Part shown: positions 25,140 through 42,202 of the stretch, one piece after another | Numbering within the stretch: the first letter of the stretch is position 1 | Layout: the number at the start of each line of letters is the position of its first letter | DNA from: Taibaiella koreensis | Lineage (GTDB): Bacteria > Bacteroidota > Bacteroidia > Chitinophagales > Chitinophagaceae | Direction of reading: 5' to 3' | Length of the DNA stretch: 64,000 nucleotides | Assembly (NCBI RefSeq): GCF_003545715.1 | Contig: NZ_QVNU01000001.1 | Span: 496,001-560,000, forward strand | Position numbers and translations under genes: made by a program | The notes under the pieces: generated by a model | What the model saw: only the letters and a program-made list of their open reading frames with translations | Told to the model about the DNA's origin: nothing | The model's database searches: none

Positions 25140-26216
25140 ATGTCGCTATTATTTTCTCCTTTGCCGGTCAAAGGCCTATTGTTGAAAAACCGGATCGTGG
25201 TGTCGCCAATGTGTCAATATTCTGCGGAAGATGGCTTTGCCAACGATTGGCACCTGGTGCATCTCGGAAGCCGGGCCGTGGGTGGCGCGGCATTGATCCT
25301 GTCCGAGGCGACGGCCATATCTTCCGAAGGACGGATATCGCCGGACGATCTGGGTATCTGGAAAGAGGAACATATCGCTAAGCTGAAGCAGATAACGGAC
25401 TTTATACACCGGCAGCACGCTTATGCGGGCATTCAGCTGGCACATGCGGGGCGCAAAGCCAGCACGCGGGCGCCCTGGAAAGGTAATGTACAGATCGGCA
25501 GGGCCGAAGGAGGCTGGCCTACAGTGGCGCCATCGGCCATTGCTTATCGCGAAGCAGATGAGCTTCCCCTGGCCTTAGACAAACAGGGTATCGAAAAAGT
25601 GATTGCTGATTTTGCGATGGCAGCCGGACGCGCAGTAGCAGCGGGCTACGATGTGATTGAGTTGCATGCGGCACATGGCTACCTGCTGCATCAATTCCTG
25701 TCGCCGCTGAGCAACCAACGGACAGACGAATACGGCGGTAGCTTTGATAACAGAACGCGGCTATTGCTGGAGGTGATCGATGCGGTTCAACCGAAAATGA
25801 AGGCGCATATGCCCTTATTTGTACGGATATCCGCTACCGACTGGGCCGATGGCGGATGGGATATCGACCAGTCTGTAGCGCTGGCAGGGCTACTTGCTGA
25901 TAAGGGTGTCGATCTGATCGATGTTTCTACGGGGGGACTGGTTACGGGTGTGCGCATTCCCCTGGAGCCCGGTTACCAGGTCCCTTTTGCAGAAAGGATC
26001 AGGAAAGAGACAGGTATGATGACCGGAGCTGTAGGTCTGATCAATAGCGCGCAGCAAGCCGAGCAAATACTTGAAGACGAGCAAGCCGACCTGGTTTTAA
26101 TGGCCAGGGAGCTGCTGCGCGATCCTTATTTCCCCTTGCGTGCGGCCGTACAGTTGGGTGACGAGCCGGCTTATCTGCCCCAATATGAAAGAGCGAAGCC
26201 GGGTAGGGAAAAATAG
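25140..26216 (+). CDS. NADH:flavin oxidoreductase, old yellow enzyme family (YqjM-like)
   Basis: A 358-residue FMN-dependent TIM-barrel ene-reductase. MSLLFSPLPVKGLLLKNRIVVSPMCQYS contains the YqjM-type redox-sensing Cys25; IQLAHAGRKAS, ELHAAHGYLLHQFLSPLSNQRTDEYGGS and LVLMARELLRDPYFP are family signatures. It reduces activated C=C bonds using NAD(P)H in the cytosol. Start at 25140; upstream in-frame residues do not fit the family. Confidence 0.93.
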   Translation: MSLLFSPLPVKGLLLKNRIVVSPMCQYSAEDGFANDWHLVHLGSRAVGGAALILSEATAISSEGRISPDDLGIWKEEHIAKLKQITDFIHRQHAYAGIQLAHAGRKASTRAPWKGNVQIGRAEGGWPTVAPSAIAYREADELPLALDKQGIEKVIADFAMAAGRAVAAGYDVIELHAAHGYLLHQFLSPLSNQRTDEYGGSFDNRTRLLLEVIDAVQPKMKAHMPLFVRISATDWADGGWDIDQSVALAGLLADKGVDLIDVSTGGLVTGVRIPLEPGYQVPFAERIRKETGMMTGAVGLINSAQQAEQILEDEQADLVLMARELLRDPYFPLRAAVQLGDEPAYLPQYERAKPGREK

Positions 26217-37312: not shown

Positions 37313-37531
37313 TTACATTTCGGCGCAGTTGCGGCAGGTAAGGTCTTCCGTTAACCATGATTCACAGGTATGGCCGATACAGCTTAAAGCGCCGCCGGGA
37401 TTACTGACGGCCACTTCGCAGCCTGAATCAGACGCGCCACCTTTTACGATAGCCGCTTCCTTGCTGGCCAGACGGACAATGGTGGTTTTTTGCAAAGAAA
37501 GCCTTTCGAGCCGGAGTGATTTCTTTTTCAT
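37313..37531 (-). CDS. Putative RiPP precursor with GG leader (class I lanthipeptide-like), copy A
   Basis: A 72-residue peptide (ATG 37531; 37537 possible). The leader MKKKSLRLERLSLQKTTIVR resembles Bacteroidota GG-type and class I lanthipeptide leaders (basic start, LxLxKxTI). It ends in GG at 31-32, followed by a 40-residue core with five Cys (38, 51, 56, 66, 69) and several Ser/Thr (SDSGC, ALSC, GHTC, DLTC). No LanB/LanC, radical-SAM or peptidase-transporter gene is in the window. A similar peptide is at 63.3 kb. A consensus promoter lies directly upstream. Confidence 0.7.
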   Translation of the reverse strand: MKKKSLRLERLSLQKTTIVRLASKEAAIVKGGASDSGCEVAVSNPGGALSCIGHTCESWLTEDLTCRNCAEM

Positions 37532-37557
37532 AAGCATATCATATTAAAGGGTTGGGA

Positions 37558-37565: not shown

Positions 37566-38003
37566 ATGGTGTCTTGCCGGCAGACCAATCCCCGGAACCG
37601 GGTAATTTGGTTATATTGGGTTCCTGCTTTTTAAAGATGTCTATGAGAATTTTTACCAGTGTTTTGTTATGCTTGCTCTGCTGCCTGTCCTGCAGGCAAG
37701 GGAGGCAAGGAGAAGACCACCGGGCGATCGCGCTGCAGCCTCTTAATGGTTACGCTCCTGAGAAAATAGTTTATATAAAGCATACATTGGAACAGTTTTA
37801 CCACCGGCGTGTCGTTGTGCTGCCCGACAAGGCCCTGCCCTCATCTTTTATTGACTATACTAAGGGCAAGCGTTACAATGCCAACCGGATACTGGAATGG
37901 CTGGCCGATGCGTGGTCCGATACTACCTTATGCGCAGTAGGACTTACGGACGAGGATATCTTTACCACGAAGCGGGATGCACGCGGACAGGTCAGGCAGC
38001 CCG

Positions 38004-38011
38004 TAAATAAA
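38004..38011. repeat. 8-bp target site duplication, left copy (TAAATAAA)
   Basis: Identical to 41931-41938, directly outside both terminal inverted repeats; 8 bp is the usual duplication length for IS1595-family transposition. Confidence 0.9.
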
Positions 38012-38038
38012 GGCACTAATATACAAGTTTACACAAAG
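38012..38038 (+). repeat. Left terminal inverted repeat of the IS
   Basis: 27 bp beginning GGCACTAATATACAAG, the exact reverse complement of 41904-41930. Confidence 0.95.
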
Positions 38039-38082
38039 TAAATGATATTGGTTTGGATACAGGCGGCGGCATAAAAATATTT

Positions 38083-38109
38083 ATGGACACTAATTAGTGT
38101 CCATTTTTT
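38083..38109 (+). terminator. 22-bp palindrome with T-run near the IS left end
   Basis: ATGGACACTAA (38083-38093) and its complement (38094-38104) form a loop-less palindrome followed by TTTTT. It could stop transcripts entering from the host gene or be an operator for the small gene at 38129. Confidence 0.55.
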
Positions 38110-38128
38110 CATTTTAAACAAATCCCTT

Positions 38129-38359
38129 ATGACGTTTTTTAAAGCCTTAATTCACAAACTAAAATTCATGTTTAAAACATCAAAAACAAACTCTGATAAC
38201 ATTTCCATTAAGGGAAATCAAAACACTTTTTATATGTACAATAATGGTAAAATTCCACCTCCTGATTGGTGGATAGTAATTTGCATTATAGGATGGATCT
38301 TAGTCCTATTTGAATTGCTATGTATCGTGCACCTAATGTCAAACTTGCACCTAATATAG
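38129..38359 (+). CDS. Small single-pass membrane protein, IS passenger
   Basis: A 76-residue protein: basic amphipathic start (MTFFKALIHKLKFMFKTSK), a short polar segment SDNISIKGNQNTFYMYNNG, then one membrane helix (WWIVICIIGWILVLFELLCIVHLM). The ISIKGNQNT pattern resembles beta-turn anchors seen just before membrane helices in some bacterial defence-type proteins, but that is only a resemblance. Its last 74 bp overlap the convergent membrane-protein gene, so one of the two may be wrong at its end. No known family. Confidence 0.45.
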   Translation: MTFFKALIHKLKFMFKTSKTNSDNISIKGNQNTFYMYNNGKIPPPDWWIVICIIGWILVLFELLCIVHLMSNLHLI

Positions 38360-38777
38360 CTGCAATAATCAATTTGAGAAAATCAATCCACCACCAATTA
38401 CGCTTCTGCCAAAGTTCTGCTTGTTCAGTTTTAAAGCGATTATCCAGATACTTGATTAATTTTTCGTAACTTTTTAATTGTTTTAGTTTTCTAGCCTCGT
38501 GGTTTGGAACTATAATATAAGAAGGATTTCCTACTTGGACTAGACCTACATCAAATAATAGGGAAGCTATATCTCTGTATGTCGATTCTTCTCGTGCATA
38601 TGAGTCTGTGTCAACATCTTTAAATCCATATTCTATTTGAAATGCTTTTCCCTTTTCATACAGGTCATTAACTTGTCCAATGTCTAAAAACGGAATCAAC
38701 GCATTTAATATTGGAATTATCTTATGGTCATAAAGAACCGGATCTTTTTCTCTTTTTAAGAGGTTAAATAGTTTCAT
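38286..38777 (-). CDS. Hypothetical membrane-anchored protein, IS passenger
   Basis: A 163-residue protein starting MKLFNLLKREKDPVLYDH. Residues 1-120 are soluble and helical (LIPFLDIGQVNDLYEKGKAFQIEYGF, DSYAREESTYRDIASLLFDVGLV, winged-helix-like in feel), followed by a basic stretch and a C-terminal membrane helix (FLKLIIAAILGASLTLGARYIA). It occurs only as cargo of the element here. Function unknown. Confidence 0.6.
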   Translation of the reverse strand: MKLFNLLKREKDPVLYDHKIIPILNALIPFLDIGQVNDLYEKGKAFQIEYGFKDVDTDSYAREESTYRDIASLLFDVGLVQVGNPSYIIVPNHEARKLKQLKSYEKLIKYLDNRFKTEQAELWQKRNWWWIDFLKLIIAAILGASLTLGARYIAIQIGLRSIL

Positions 38778-38834
38778 AGTAAAAAGTGTTTGGTACTACA
38801 AAATACAAATTTCACAATACCAAACAAAACCAGC

Positions 38835-39287
38835 TTACCAGATTTTAGGAATGAAGACTATTGCTAGTCCAAGGAATGAGTAGAATACAAACTCGGGTAG
38901 ATCAAAAGAATTAAAAATACCATTAAATCCAGTATGAGAAGCATAACTATAACTAGGATCAATACCAACAAAAGTTACACCTTCTACATAAGTAGTAAAG
39001 TTGGTAAAGGGCCAGAAATCCCCTTGGTTTTGTCCACTTGTCCAAATATTGCCTCCTCTGGTATAGTGGCCTTTTAAATCAGCAAGGTTAACAAAAAAGG
39101 CAAATGAACAAACTCCTATCCAAACAATAAGAAATCTCTTTTCTGATACTTTTAGTGCTTTAGAACGTGGTAATGGAGATTCTGTTTTAGGAGGCTCGGA
39201 TTGAGGATCATCAAAAGATTTGATAACTTTTAAATGAATTATATAAGCAATTATCAAAACCGCTATCACTAAGACAATACCTATCAT
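38835..39287 (-). CDS. Hypothetical membrane protein, IS passenger
   Basis: A 150-residue protein with three apparent membrane helices (IGIVLVIAVLIIAYIIHL near the start, RFLIVWIGVCSFAFFVNL about 52-69, and FVFYSFLGLAIVFIPKIW at the very C-terminus) and a Gly/aromatic-rich outer loop. It overlaps the DUF4468 gene by 4 bp (ATGA), so both are translated together. No family recognised. Confidence 0.6.
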   Translation of the reverse strand: MIGIVLVIAVLIIAYIIHLKVIKSFDDPQSEPPKTESPLPRSKALKVSEKRFLIVWIGVCSFAFFVNLADLKGHYTRGGNIWTSGQNQGDFWPFTNFTTYVEGVTFVGIDPSYSYASHTGFNGIFNSFDLPEFVFYSFLGLAIVFIPKIW

Positions 39288-39907
39288 ATCTGTCCAGTTA
39301 AAGTGTTCTTCAATTCATCTTTGATCTGTTTGATTTGTGCCATGAAAGCATCATCTTCAAACCTGTTGCGTTCCACAAATTCTTCAAGGTCGAATTTACG
39401 TACATCACCAGCACTAAACTCTACAAAACCTGATGAAGAAGCAAACCCCTCTTCGGGGGAGCCTTTTGTCCTGCCTCTTTTTTGATGAACGGTTACAAAT
39501 TCCATTACTTTAAAATTAGTCAGCTTATAGGTGTAACTATTTTCGCTAACTGCAATTTTGAAGTTGTAGGTAACTACAAATCTACTTTTATTTCTATATT
39601 CAAAATTGAAAAAGCCATTTCCAGTATAGACCCCATCCACTGGATCAGAATAGGTGATGGGCTTGTAGACAATTTTTAACTTGACATTGGACTTGTCCTT
39701 ACATCTAATATTCTCTATTCTATCAAAATTTTGAGAGAGTATAAATTGTTCAGCTCTCTTATATAACCGTTCCTTAGAGACTTCTACAGATACAGTCTTG
39801 GTAAAGGTAATTTTCCCTGTTTTTGGATCAGTGGGATAATCTGTTTCTTGAGCAAATGAAAATAATGAGCACATCAATAGTGCTAAGGTGATTAGGGGTT
39901 TGAGCAT
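39284..39907 (-). CDS. DUF4468-type secreted protein, IS passenger
   Basis: A 207-residue protein with signal peptide MLKPLITLALLMCSLFSFAQ. ITFTKTVSVEVSKERLYKRAEQFILSQN followed by beta strands (LKIVYKPITY, FNFEYRNKSRFVVTYNFKIAV) and YTYKLTNFKVMEFV matches the pattern of the Bacteroidota DUF4468 (TBP-like fold) family. Function unknown. First gene of the minus-strand passenger pair. The chosen start (39907) precedes the signal peptide; longer in-frame starts do not. Confidence 0.65.
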   Translation of the reverse strand: MLKPLITLALLMCSLFSFAQETDYPTDPKTGKITFTKTVSVEVSKERLYKRAEQFILSQNFDRIENIRCKDKSNVKLKIVYKPITYSDPVDGVYTGNGFFNFEYRNKSRFVVTYNFKIAVSENSYTYKLTNFKVMEFVTVHQKRGRTKGSPEEGFASSSGFVEFSAGDVRKFDLEEFVERNRFEDDAFMAQIKQIKDELKNTLTGQI

Positions 39908-40218
39908 AGGTTGTGGTAATTTGGAGAAATAAAATAGCGCAGCCGAATCTCTCTTGCTCTCCTGGCTTACCACAGCCAACTCAATACAAAAGGAACAGCT
40001 ACGCCATACAGCGTATCACATCCATATTAATCTGTATTGAGGTCTGCGCTTTAAGGTGGTAATTTGGAGAGCAGATGTCAGGGTGTAATACTTATCTTAA
40101 GTTATCTTATAGGCAGAAGGATTTGACACAAAAATAACGAAAATGGTGAAAAAATATTAAGACGTACTTTACACTTTGTGTAATTAAATGCTTAACTTTG
40201 TCTTACAAATCCAAAGCT
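39908..40218. other. Divergent 311-bp control region inside the IS
   Basis: No gene is seen. It has a direct repeat TGGTAATTTGGAGA (39914-39927 and 40057-40070) and, before the transposase, TAACTTTG (40193-40200), an exact -7 box. CTTTGTGTAA at 40174-40183 repeats the innermost ten bases of the element's right terminal repeat. Confidence 0.5.
40193..40200 (+). promoter_or_regulatory. -7 promoter box (TAACTTTG) of the IS transposase
   Basis: Exact TAnnTTTG 18 bp before ATG 40219. Confidence 0.5.
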
Positions 40219-41226
40219 ATGTTCTCTGTCAAACCATTCAAATCGCTTACGCAATTACTTGCTGCTTTTCCCACTGAACAAAGTGTTATAGACCATTTGG
40301 AGTTTATTAGGTGGAATGGAAATGTTGTTTCTCCTTTTGATCCTACTTCCAAAGTTTACAAATGTAAAGGCAATAAGTATCGCTGTTTGAATACTAAGAA
40401 ATACTTTACGGTCCGTACAAAATCCATCTATGAAAACTCCAAAATACCATTACAAACATGGTTAATGGCAATTTATTTGTTCACCACATCGAAACGCGGA
40501 ATCAGTTCTTATGCTATGGCTGATCAACTCGGTATCACTCAAAAATCCGCTTGGTTTTTATTAAGCAGGCTCAGATATGCAATGAATCATCCTGCCTTTA
40601 TGGAGCAACTTTCAGGAGAAGTAGAATCTGACGAATCATTTTTTGGTGGGAAGAATAAGAATCGTCATCATGATAAGAAAGTGGAAAAGTCACAGGGTAG
40701 AAGCTTTAAAGACAAAACACCCATACTCGGTCTTGTAGAACGTTCTGAATATACCATTGTAGAAAGGCCAAATAAAGTTGATCCTAGTAAGAAAGTGAAA
40801 GAGAAGAACTATCACAAGATAAGTAGAGTAAAATGTCAAGTTGTTGAGAATACAGGTATTGCCGCAATACAGCCTCATATCCTAAAAATAGTGGAACCAG
40901 GGGCAGCTTTATTCACTGACGAATGGCAAGGTTACAATGGAATGGATGCCTACTATGATCATGAGATTACAGACCATTCTAAGGGGCAATATGTAAATGG
41001 TGATGCCAGCACAAACAGGTGTGAAAACTTTTGGTCACATATGAAAAGATCAATTATTGGAGTGTACTACAAGACTAGTAGGAAACACTTACAGAAGTAT
41101 GCGGATGAAATGTCCTTCCGATTTAACTTCAGAATGAATTCCATTTCAGAAAAACTTGATCTATTTTTACAATCCGCTAGTACAAAAAGATTGAGTTATA
41201 AAATGCTGGTTAATGGATGTGAATGA
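40219..41226 (+). CDS. IS1595-family transposase
   Basis: A 335-residue DDE transposase. The N-terminal part has a helix-turn-helix-like region and a zinc-ribbon remnant (VYKCKGNKYRCLNTKKYFTVRT) with two of the usual four cysteines. Catalytic residues are Asp138 (EVESDESFFGG), Asp234 (LFTDEWQGY) and Glu269 (NRCENFWSHMKR), as in ISXO2/IS1595 enzymes. ATG 40219 (MFSVKPFKS) was preferred over TTG 40198. It cuts and inserts the element carrying it. The 3' end overlaps the next gene by 14 bp. Confidence 0.93.
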   Translation: MFSVKPFKSLTQLLAAFPTEQSVIDHLEFIRWNGNVVSPFDPTSKVYKCKGNKYRCLNTKKYFTVRTKSIYENSKIPLQTWLMAIYLFTTSKRGISSYAMADQLGITQKSAWFLLSRLRYAMNHPAFMEQLSGEVESDESFFGGKNKNRHHDKKVEKSQGRSFKDKTPILGLVERSEYTIVERPNKVDPSKKVKEKNYHKISRVKCQVVENTGIAAIQPHILKIVEPGAALFTDEWQGYNGMDAYYDHEITDHSKGQYVNGDASTNRCENFWSHMKRSIIGVYYKTSRKHLQKYADEMSFRFNFRMNSISEKLDLFLQSASTKRLSYKMLVNGCE

Positions 41227-41596
41227 AACATACAAGAAATTACTGGAAGAACTGTATAGACTAACCAACAAAGAGTTTAGTCAATCAGATAGGCACATGA
41301 TTTTCCAAAGGTATATCTATGATAGAATACCTGATGAAGAAATGAGTAAAGCCCTTAAAGGAAAGATGAAACAGCTAATCACTGTCTCGTTACCTGATGG
41401 GCTACAGATAGAACCAATTTTAAAACAAACTTTGAAAATACTAGCGTTAATGGAAGTATCTGATAACTGGCAAGAGTTCGAGAACCTAGCAAACAAAAAG
41501 AAAAAGCCTGATAAGCCCAAAGAGCTAACAGACTTCGATAAAATCCTCAAAGGAATATTCCAAGTCCCTAAACCTAAAGAAGAGCCACCCGAATAA
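41213..41596 (+). CDS. Hypothetical protein coupled to the transposase
   Basis: A 127-residue, highly charged, helical protein (MDVNETYKKLLEELYRLTNKEF start; Lys/Pro/Glu-rich C-terminus). It overlaps the transposase end by 14 bp, so it is probably translated from the same message and could be an accessory or regulatory factor of transposition. No family recognised. Confidence 0.55.
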   Translation: MDVNETYKKLLEELYRLTNKEFSQSDRHMIFQRYIYDRIPDEEMSKALKGKMKQLITVSLPDGLQIEPILKQTLKILALMEVSDNWQEFENLANKKKKPDKPKELTDFDKILKGIFQVPKPKEEPPE

Positions 41597-41609
41597 GGTG
41601 GCTTTATTG
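41583..41609 (+). terminator. Hairpin at the end of the transposase operon
   Basis: AGCCACC (41583-41589) pairs with GGTGGCT (41597-41603), then TTTATT. The stop codon of the preceding gene lies in the loop. Confidence 0.6.
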
Positions 41610-41630
41610 TTTCAACTCAAATTTTAAATT

Positions 41631-41798
41631 ATGAACACTTTCTCAGAAAAAAACTATCATAAAGTAGAAGAAATACAGAAGTCACTTATAGGGCTAACTT
41701 TTCAACAAGCATTGACTTTATTGAAAGAGGTGGAGAAAACTCTTTATCTAACTACTTTAATCCAAGATGATTCTCTATCTCAGAATATTGGGTCTTAA
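41631..41798 (+). CDS. Small hypothetical protein (55 aa), IS passenger
   Basis: A 55-residue frame starting MNTFSEKNYHKVEEIQKSLI with a helical, charged sequence (LTFQQALTLLKEVEKTLYL). It lies 28 bp after the transposase-operon hairpin. Its composition looks protein-like, but no family is recognised and it could be fortuitous. Confidence 0.4.
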   Translation: MNTFSEKNYHKVEEIQKSLIGLTFQQALTLLKEVEKTLYLTTLIQDDSLSQNIGS

Positions 41799-41847
41799 TA
41801 GAAAACTCATCTCCATTCATATCTTCGATCTCAATAAAATTAGCCAT
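41752..41847 (-). CDS. Very short reading frame (31 aa) near IS right end
   Basis: MANFIEIEDMNGDEFSIKTQ... resembles the start of small Bacteroidota proteins of the type FIEIxDxxG, but stops after 31 codons. It overlaps the plus-strand 55-codon frame. May be a decayed remnant. Confidence 0.2.
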   Translation of the reverse strand: MANFIEIEDMNGDEFSIKTQYSEIENHLGLK

Positions 41848-41903
41848 AATGGTTAGTTTTTGGTGAAGTAACAAAATACAAAATCAACTGACAAATCAAA
41901 AAT

Positions 41904-41930
41904 CTTTGTGTAAACTTGTATATTAGTGCC
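41904..41930 (-). repeat. Right terminal inverted repeat of the IS
   Basis: 27 bp, exact reverse complement of 38012-38038, ending TATTAGTGCC next to the TAAATAAA duplication. Confidence 0.95.
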
Positions 41931-41938
41931 TAAATAAA
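41931..41938. repeat. 8-bp target site duplication, right copy (TAAATAAA)
   Basis: Second copy of the 38004-38011 sequence. Confidence 0.9.
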
Positions 41939-42202
41939 TATGCCGTATGGGGCATTTTCGGTCTTGGACTTTGCCCGGGTAAAGCCTGCGTGGTAGCTGA
42001 CCACAGGTTGACGACAAATGATGAACAGCGTTTCCGGCATCGTATCCGAACGGTAGTGCTGCATGAAATAGGACACAACCTGGGCTTGCCGCATTGCAGC
42101 AGCCAGGGCTGTATTATGTCGGACGCCAACGAAAAGATCGCGACGGTCGATCGCAGCGGAGATAACTATTGCAAGGCCTGTATCCGGAAGGCAGATCTTT
42201 GA
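41939..42202 (+). pseudogene. Archaemetzincin gene, C-terminal fragment with zinc site
   Basis: Continues in frame from the N-terminal fragment (…VNK|YAVWGIFGLGLCPGKACVV…). It contains the archaemetzincin signature: HEIGHNLGLPHC, then four residues, Cys, Ile-Met, 17 residues and CKAC, i.e. HExxHxxGxxHCx4CxMx17CxxC exactly. The zinc ligands are in HExxHxxGxxH; the four Cys probably hold a second zinc. The fragment has lost its start codon and export signal. It converges on the methyltransferase gene. Confidence 0.88.

What the first reader, a model, noticed from the sequence alone, without database searches (positions are those of the whole stretch)
37637..42202. Archaemetzincin gene split by an IS; removing the IS restores one exact reading frame
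Seen directly: the N-terminal fragment runs to 38011, and joining it to 41939 (removing the IS and one TAAATAAA copy) continues in frame through the complete signature HExxHxxGxxHCx4CxMx17CxxC. So a secreted, lipoprotein-type archaemetzincin of about 212 residues existed until recently. The lack of any further frameshift or stop argues for a young insertion, and loss may be reversible if the element excises precisely.
Basis: partly seen in the sequence, partly recalled or inferred. Interest (0 to 1): 0.8.

Follow-up and report, generated by a model that had tools for sequence, protein, structure and literature searches.

The report
Protease gene interrupted by a transposon
In a Bacteroidota bacterium, a cargo-carrying IS1595 transposon has inserted into a gene for an archaemetzincin-type zinc protease and cut it in two; the reading is correct, but it looks like an ordinary transposon insertion into an optional gene.

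Summary
A 3,919-bp IS1595-family element (38012-41930; perfect 27-bp inverted repeats; 8-bp duplication TAAATAAA at both ends) splits an M54 archaemetzincin gene (37637-42202). With one duplication copy counted, the flanks form one 212-codon frame with the exact archaemetzincin signature, and relatives in five other genera run across the same border, so a whole gene did exist.

Parts of the interpretation are weaker. An in-frame flank join is what any clean insertion into an open frame gives. Lack of stops bounds age only to about 2-5% neutral divergence. 'Reversible' is unsupported. The gene is optional: 3 of 3 held congeners have no M54 match, the closest lacking exactly this gene here; a second open M54 gene lies about 232 kb away.

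The element is less ordinary. It carries three genes left of the transposase; a T. helva element with a 95% identical transposase carries unrelated genes there. An uncharacterised gene behind the transposase was found at nine places in 8 of 394 genomes; all nine have an IS1595 transposase upstream, eight of them directly. Verdict: new member of a known kind, low interest.

The parts
37637..38011 (+). N-terminal half (125 codons) of the M54 gene, including one copy of the 8-bp duplication; its open frame now runs on into the element and stops at 38041
38004..38011 (.). target-site duplication TAAATAAA, left copy
38012..38038 (.). left terminal inverted repeat, 27 bp, identical to the right one
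38012..41930 (+). IS1595-family element with passenger genes, 3,919 bp, GC 0.34, the only copy in the genome
38083..38104 (.). terminator-like hairpin just inside the left end (9 pairs), reported on both strands; would stop read-through between gene and element
   Evidence: consensus match only; 14 such sites in the stretch against 3.7, sd 2.1, in shuffles
38286..38777 (-). passenger gene 1, 163 aa; no Pfam, PADLOC or PHROGs family, only a sub-cut-off NCBIfam hit (15 of 150 bits)
38835..39287 (-). passenger gene 2, 150 aa; no Pfam, PADLOC or PHROGs family, only a sub-cut-off NCBIfam hit (13 of 40 bits)
39284..39907 (-). passenger gene 3, 207 aa from the first ATG; DUF4468 (PF14730, 25.5 bits, cut-off 22.6, on the longer frame 39284-39979)
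40219..41226 (+). IS1595 transposase (335 aa from ATG 40219; 342 aa from TTG 40198), PF12762 and NF033547; D138, D234, E269 invariant in the 10 transposases aligned, this one included
41213..41596 (+). accessory gene (127 aa) overlapping the transposase end; no Pfam or NCBIfam family; behind an IS1595 transposase at nine of nine places found, directly at eight
41904..41930 (.). right terminal inverted repeat, 27 bp
41931..41938 (.). target-site duplication TAAATAAA, right copy
41939..42202 (+). C-terminal half (87 codons and stop) of the M54 gene with the zinc site, Met-turn and four cysteines; no export signal of its own seen

Best explanation
An IS1595-family transposon with passenger genes inserted into a non-essential M54 (archaemetzincin) gene of a Taibaiella species, in one of the three fully A+T clusters of that gene, duplicating 8 bp. 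The insertion separates the likely export signal (N half) from the zinc-binding catalytic half (C half), and a terminator-like hairpin just inside the left end should stop transcription, so the gene is most likely dead. Shown: element borders, duplication, one frame in the flanks, relatives that run across the border, absence in congeners, a second M54 gene. Inferred: loss of function, target choice by A+T richness, fairly recent age.
For: Exact duplication and 27-bp repeats. Transposase complete, DDE residues invariant in 10 of 10 aligned. One 212-codon frame with full signature. Halves abut in the alignment with nine relatives of five genera. Of 12 delimited elements, window included, 9 duplications are all A/T and 3 are 7 of 8; only 8 of 632 octamers of the gene are all A/T, in three clusters, the insertion in one. 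Gene optional: 3 of 3 congeners have no M54 match; 94 of 394 family genomes, own included, match the C half at E 0.001; second M54 gene in the genome.
Against: No reads or same-species empty site were available, so an assembly fault or strain polymorphism is not excluded. Expression of the halves was not measured. The C half has a possible GTG start at 41990 that keeps the zinc site, and one sigma-70-like site faces it at 41888-41916 (that consensus may not suit Bacteroidota).
Confidence: 0.95

Rival explanations
1. The gene was already silent or decaying before the transposon arrived; the insertion is a late event in the loss of an accessory gene.
For: No M54 match in 3 of 3 congeners; 3 other sampled family genomes carry damaged, or possibly misassembled, copies (G310 lacking the N part, G348 and G242 with the two parts in different frames).
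Against: No other lesion in 212 codons and every signature residue kept.
Confidence: 0.2
2. A reversible switch: the element excises precisely and restores the gene.
For: Exact 8-bp duplication and perfect 27-bp repeats would permit slippage-type precise excision in principle (general knowledge, recalled).
Against: No empty allele seen; nothing specific to this site; every IS with a duplication has this geometry. The literature on IS1595 excision was only listed, not read.
Confidence: 0.03
3. Assembly artefact at a repeat.
For: Raw reads cannot be checked here.
Against: Single-copy element inside a 1.59-Mb contig with a matching duplication that a misjoin would not be expected to create; a related element with its own duplication TTAAAAGT sits elsewhere in T. 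helva.
Confidence: 0.02

Closest known systems
Archaemetzincins, peptidase family M54 (2x7m, 3zvs/4a3w, 4axq)
   Same: Exact signature HExxHxxGxxHCx4CxMx17CxxC, as printed in PMC3427221 (start of abstract, passages); C half matches these chains at 3.6e-14, 1.8e-12 and 1.9e-12. PMC4681839 (start of abstract, passages) includes a Flavobacterium member and reports proteolytic activity for the archaeal AMZ-tk
   Different: Has an N-terminal hydrophobic segment followed by Cys (possible lipoprotein); here interrupted
IS1595 family insertion sequences (DDE_Tnp_IS1595; related to eukaryotic Merlin, PMC8101967 passages)
   Same: Transposase domain, 8-bp duplication; the ends start with GG, as given there for Merlin
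   Different: The paper describes a single transposase gene; this element adds an accessory gene and three passenger genes. That some IS1595 elements carry passenger genes is recalled (Siguier et al. 2009, not read); the 15 papers were seen as a listing only
IS1595 element of Taibaiella helva (L065:2618-7273)
   Same: Transposase 95%, accessory gene 83-84% identical; left repeat 25 of 27 bases alike
   Different: Left-arm passenger genes give no BLASTP match at 1e-3 to those here, though about 43 non-coding bases are shared (88%); right repeat has 7 mismatches

Membership tests
M54 archaemetzincin | HExxHxxGxxHCx4CxMx17CxxC | tested here: met
   regular expression on the joined flanks. Of 37 relatives collected (chosen by HExGHxxGxxH and a frame of 150 aa or more) 15 have it strictly, 16 more have a last gap of 15 or 16, and 6 match neither
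M54 archaemetzincin | Pfam Peptidase_M54 score over cut-off | tested here: met
   C half 61 bits against 24.4; N half alone has no Pfam hit
M54 archaemetzincin | NCBIfam archmetzin whole-protein cut-off (145 bits) | tested here: inconclusive
   halves scored apart, 21.3 and 76.4 bits; the open second gene of the genome scores only 94.5
M54 archaemetzincin | proteolytic activity | not testable with these tools
   interrupted gene; the literature is divided (AfAmzA inactive on many substrates; AMZ-tk active)
IS1595 | IS1595 transposase models | tested here: met
   PF12762 1.5e-41; NF033547 193.8 bits against cut-off 75
IS1595 | 8-bp target duplication | tested here: met
IS1595 | N-terminal zinc-finger domain (lacking only in the IS1016 group) | tested here: inconclusive
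   no zinc-finger domain hit; two invariant Cys (49, 56) in 10 aligned
IS1595 | single transposase gene | tested here: not met
   accessory gene plus three passenger genes; the source's word 'usually' may or may not cover this feature, so I treat it as typical, not strict

The most novel reading that the evidence does not exclude
The element belongs to a lineage of IS1595 transposons that works as a cargo-exchanging vehicle: the transposase stays while the genes beside it are replaced wholesale. Three sets of elements have transposases 91-96% identical but left-arm genes that do not match: window/T. helva (the accessory gene stays), L075/L082/L098 (the whole right arm stays), and L071/L078 (the right arm differs too). 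Conversely L071 and L073 share left-arm genes although their transposases are only 56% identical. The gene directly behind the transposase is a dedicated partner of transposition.
Probability: 0.35. Interest if true: 0.45.

Novelty: new member of a known kind. Interest (0 to 1): 0.2.

Why it matters
It documents loss of a bacterial archaemetzincin, a family of which little is known biologically (PMC3427221, start of abstract), by a mobile element, and suggests that the gene is optional in this bacterial family. The cargo turnover in the IS1595 lineage, with a linked accessory gene, could be tested and would show how a small IS becomes a gene carrier.

Tried and rejected
Lanthipeptide link: the M54 gene starts 99 bp from a class I lanthipeptide precursor, so I asked whether it could be the leader peptidase. 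A pattern scan found no such precursor in the 9-14 kb around nine relatives (L113-L121); dropped. The pattern is loose; its only positive control was the window's own precursor.

Horizontal gain or loss of the M54 gene: seven window neighbours searched against nine relatives' surroundings gave one weak hit only (43031 product, 28%, 1e-4, in L119). In the six other-genus genomes present in both calls the flanking TrmH gene is 41-44% identical, the M54 C half 45-68% and the N half 30-38%. This does not separate gain from loss; no tree was built.

Defence cargo: PADLOC gave nothing convincing for nine element proteins (best 0.0012, PtuB, on a T. helva gene, and 0.019, TRIP13). Outward promoter for the C half: sigma-70-type matches hardly more frequent than in shuffles (19 against 13.9, sd 3.3).

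Full report
WHAT IS THERE. The window is G000:C10:496001-560000 of a 5.94-Mb, 24-contig genome. Its genus holds four genomes, own included. G003 contig C31 has 321,262 bases and its element match starts at base 25807, the same length and place as in Taibaiella helva F-4 contig NZ_QUZZ01000007.1 (4925 of L065). Between 38012 and 41930 lies an element of 3,919 bp with GC 0.34, between stretches of 0.478 and 0.493. Its ends are 27-bp perfect inverted repeats and TAAATAAA stands directly outside each end. The transposase belongs to IS1595 (PF12762 1.5e-41, NF033547 193.8 bits) and keeps D138, D234 and E269, invariant in the 10 transposases aligned, itself included (the short L096 and L098 frames were left out). 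It is the only copy in the genome.

THE INTERRUPTED GENE. Left of the element an open frame from 37637 ends inside it at 38041; right of it a frame carries the zinc site. Counting one duplication copy, the flanks give 639 nt in one frame, no internal stop, 212 aa, with the exact archaemetzincin signature. The C half hits Peptidase_M54 (2e-16) and solved archaemetzincins (2x7m 3.6e-14, 3zvs 1.8e-12). The N half has no Pfam hit and hits only NCBIfam archmetzin, weakly (2e-4), at positions 2-83, the C half at 86-169. Nine relatives (five of genus g93, one each of g29, g108, g116 and g118; the long frame of L005 trimmed to its last 215 residues) were aligned with the two halves as separate rows. 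The last column of the N half is 149, the first of the C half 150; near the border eight of nine have the same length and L034 has one extra residue. Identities are 22-38% for the N half and 43-68% for the C half.

WHAT IT MEANS. The likely export signal and the catalytic half are now separate. The C half has at best a GTG start at 41990, and a terminator-like hairpin lies 71 bp inside the left end (consensus match only). Loss of function is likely but inferred. The gene is optional. None of the three held congeners has an M54 match at E 0.001. In G003 the flanks match up to about 29 bp before the start codon and again from about the last codon on, with about 117 unrelated bases between: the whole gene is a presence/absence difference. 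In the family, 94 of 394 sampled genomes match the C half, own included; some of the weakest matches may be other metalloproteases. Four of these 94 have a best open frame under 100 aa: this one, G310, G348 and G242. In G348 and G242 the parts lie in different frames close together; in G310 the N part was not found in the 8 kb read. Assembly error is possible in all three. A second M54 gene, an open 306-aa frame, lies in the same contig at 770177-770476 (L111:4052-4972). It does not have the strict signature (L019) and is 34% identical over 50 residues of the C half, so whether it could stand in is unknown.

AGE AND REVERSIBILITY. An in-frame flank join is expected for any insertion with a duplication into an open frame, so it says no more than that the gene was open. 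The lack of lesions bounds neutral divergence only to about 0.05, 0.03 or 0.02 per site for indel/substitution ratios of 0.05, 0.1 and 0.2 (rule of three, all indels taken as disabling). The search did not name IS1595; ('IS1595' and 'excision') gave 33 papers, 15 listed; I opened none of them for this question. Reversibility is a possibility, not a finding.

WHY HERE. Of 27 loci examined (25 of the 35, plus L056 and L057), 13 gave a duplication with matching ends. I kept 11 and dropped L083 (poor ends) and L088 (distant). With the window, 9 of 12 duplications are all A/T and the other three are 7 of 8. In the gene only 8 of 632 octamers are all A/T, in three clusters, and the insertion sits in one. 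A+T preference is enough to explain the site.

THE ELEMENT ITSELF. Left of the transposase are three leftward genes (163, 150 and 207 aa; the last DUF4468) and a 76-aa rightward frame of doubtful status at 38129-38359. The T. helva element (L065:2618-7273, duplication TTAAAAGT) has a 95% identical transposase and an 83-84% identical accessory gene, but none of its four left-arm frames matches those here at 1e-3 (frames of 70 aa or more). About 43 bases between left-arm genes are shared at 88%. L075/L082/L098 have transposases 95-96% identical (L098's frame is short, 257 aa) and matching right arms but different left arms; L071/L078 (91%) match in the transposase only; L071/L073 (56%) share three left-arm frames. 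The accessory gene (127 aa) was found at nine places in 8 of 394 genomes. At all nine an IS1595 transposase match lies upstream: directly at eight, and at L128 as a C-terminal piece about 1.3 kb before it. Elements L069 and L099 have a P63C protein at that position and L066 a RhuM-family protein. The accessory protein has a weak PHROG match (phrog_2384, 1.2e-4, unknown function). No paper of the library holds both 'IS1595' and 'P63C'. Of its passenger genes, DUF4468 relatives occur in 9 of 324 genomes and gene 1 relatives in 2 of 324, own included; in the stretches of 2.1-3.6 kb read around the other copies (L136-L143, L145) no transposase match was seen. Upstream of the transposase start in the window, L065, L071, L073 and L078 sits a palindrome-like stretch that resembles the inner half of the terminal repeat (by eye, no control).

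VERDICT. Observation right; interpretation right in its core and overstated on age and reversibility; ordinary in kind.

Noticed in passing
37313-37537 (-): Class I lanthipeptide precursor (NF038153, 27.2 bits, cut-off 22), starting 99 bp from the M54 gene on the other strand; conserved in G003 (68%). No modification genes were looked for.
   Followed up: partly
L108:6521-8845: G003 carries an M4 (thermolysin-type) protease beside the lanthipeptide gene, while the window has the M54 gene on its other side: a variable spot between the 36273 gene and TrmH.
   Followed up: partly
41213-41596: Accessory gene with an IS1595 transposase upstream at nine of nine places found, directly at eight; function unknown.
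   Followed up: partly
L075:2375-3826, L098:2392-4710: Streptococcus IS1595 elements with 95-96% identical transposases carry different left arms; that of L075 encodes an N6 DNA methylase, that of L098 a 773-aa protein without Pfam hit.
   Followed up: no
40150-40219: Palindrome-like TTTACAC..GTGTAA about 50 bp upstream of the transposase start, resembling the inner terminal repeat; possible self-regulation or relic of an older end.
   Followed up: no
G310:C1:4442737, G348:C16:69936, G242:C26:27394: Three other damaged (or misassembled) M54 genes in the family.
   Followed up: partly
38773-38813: About 40 bases upstream of passenger gene 1 recur in the T. helva element (88%) and once elsewhere in this genome (C22:13679-13718, 93%), where no element was seen in the 3 kb read.
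   Followed up: partly
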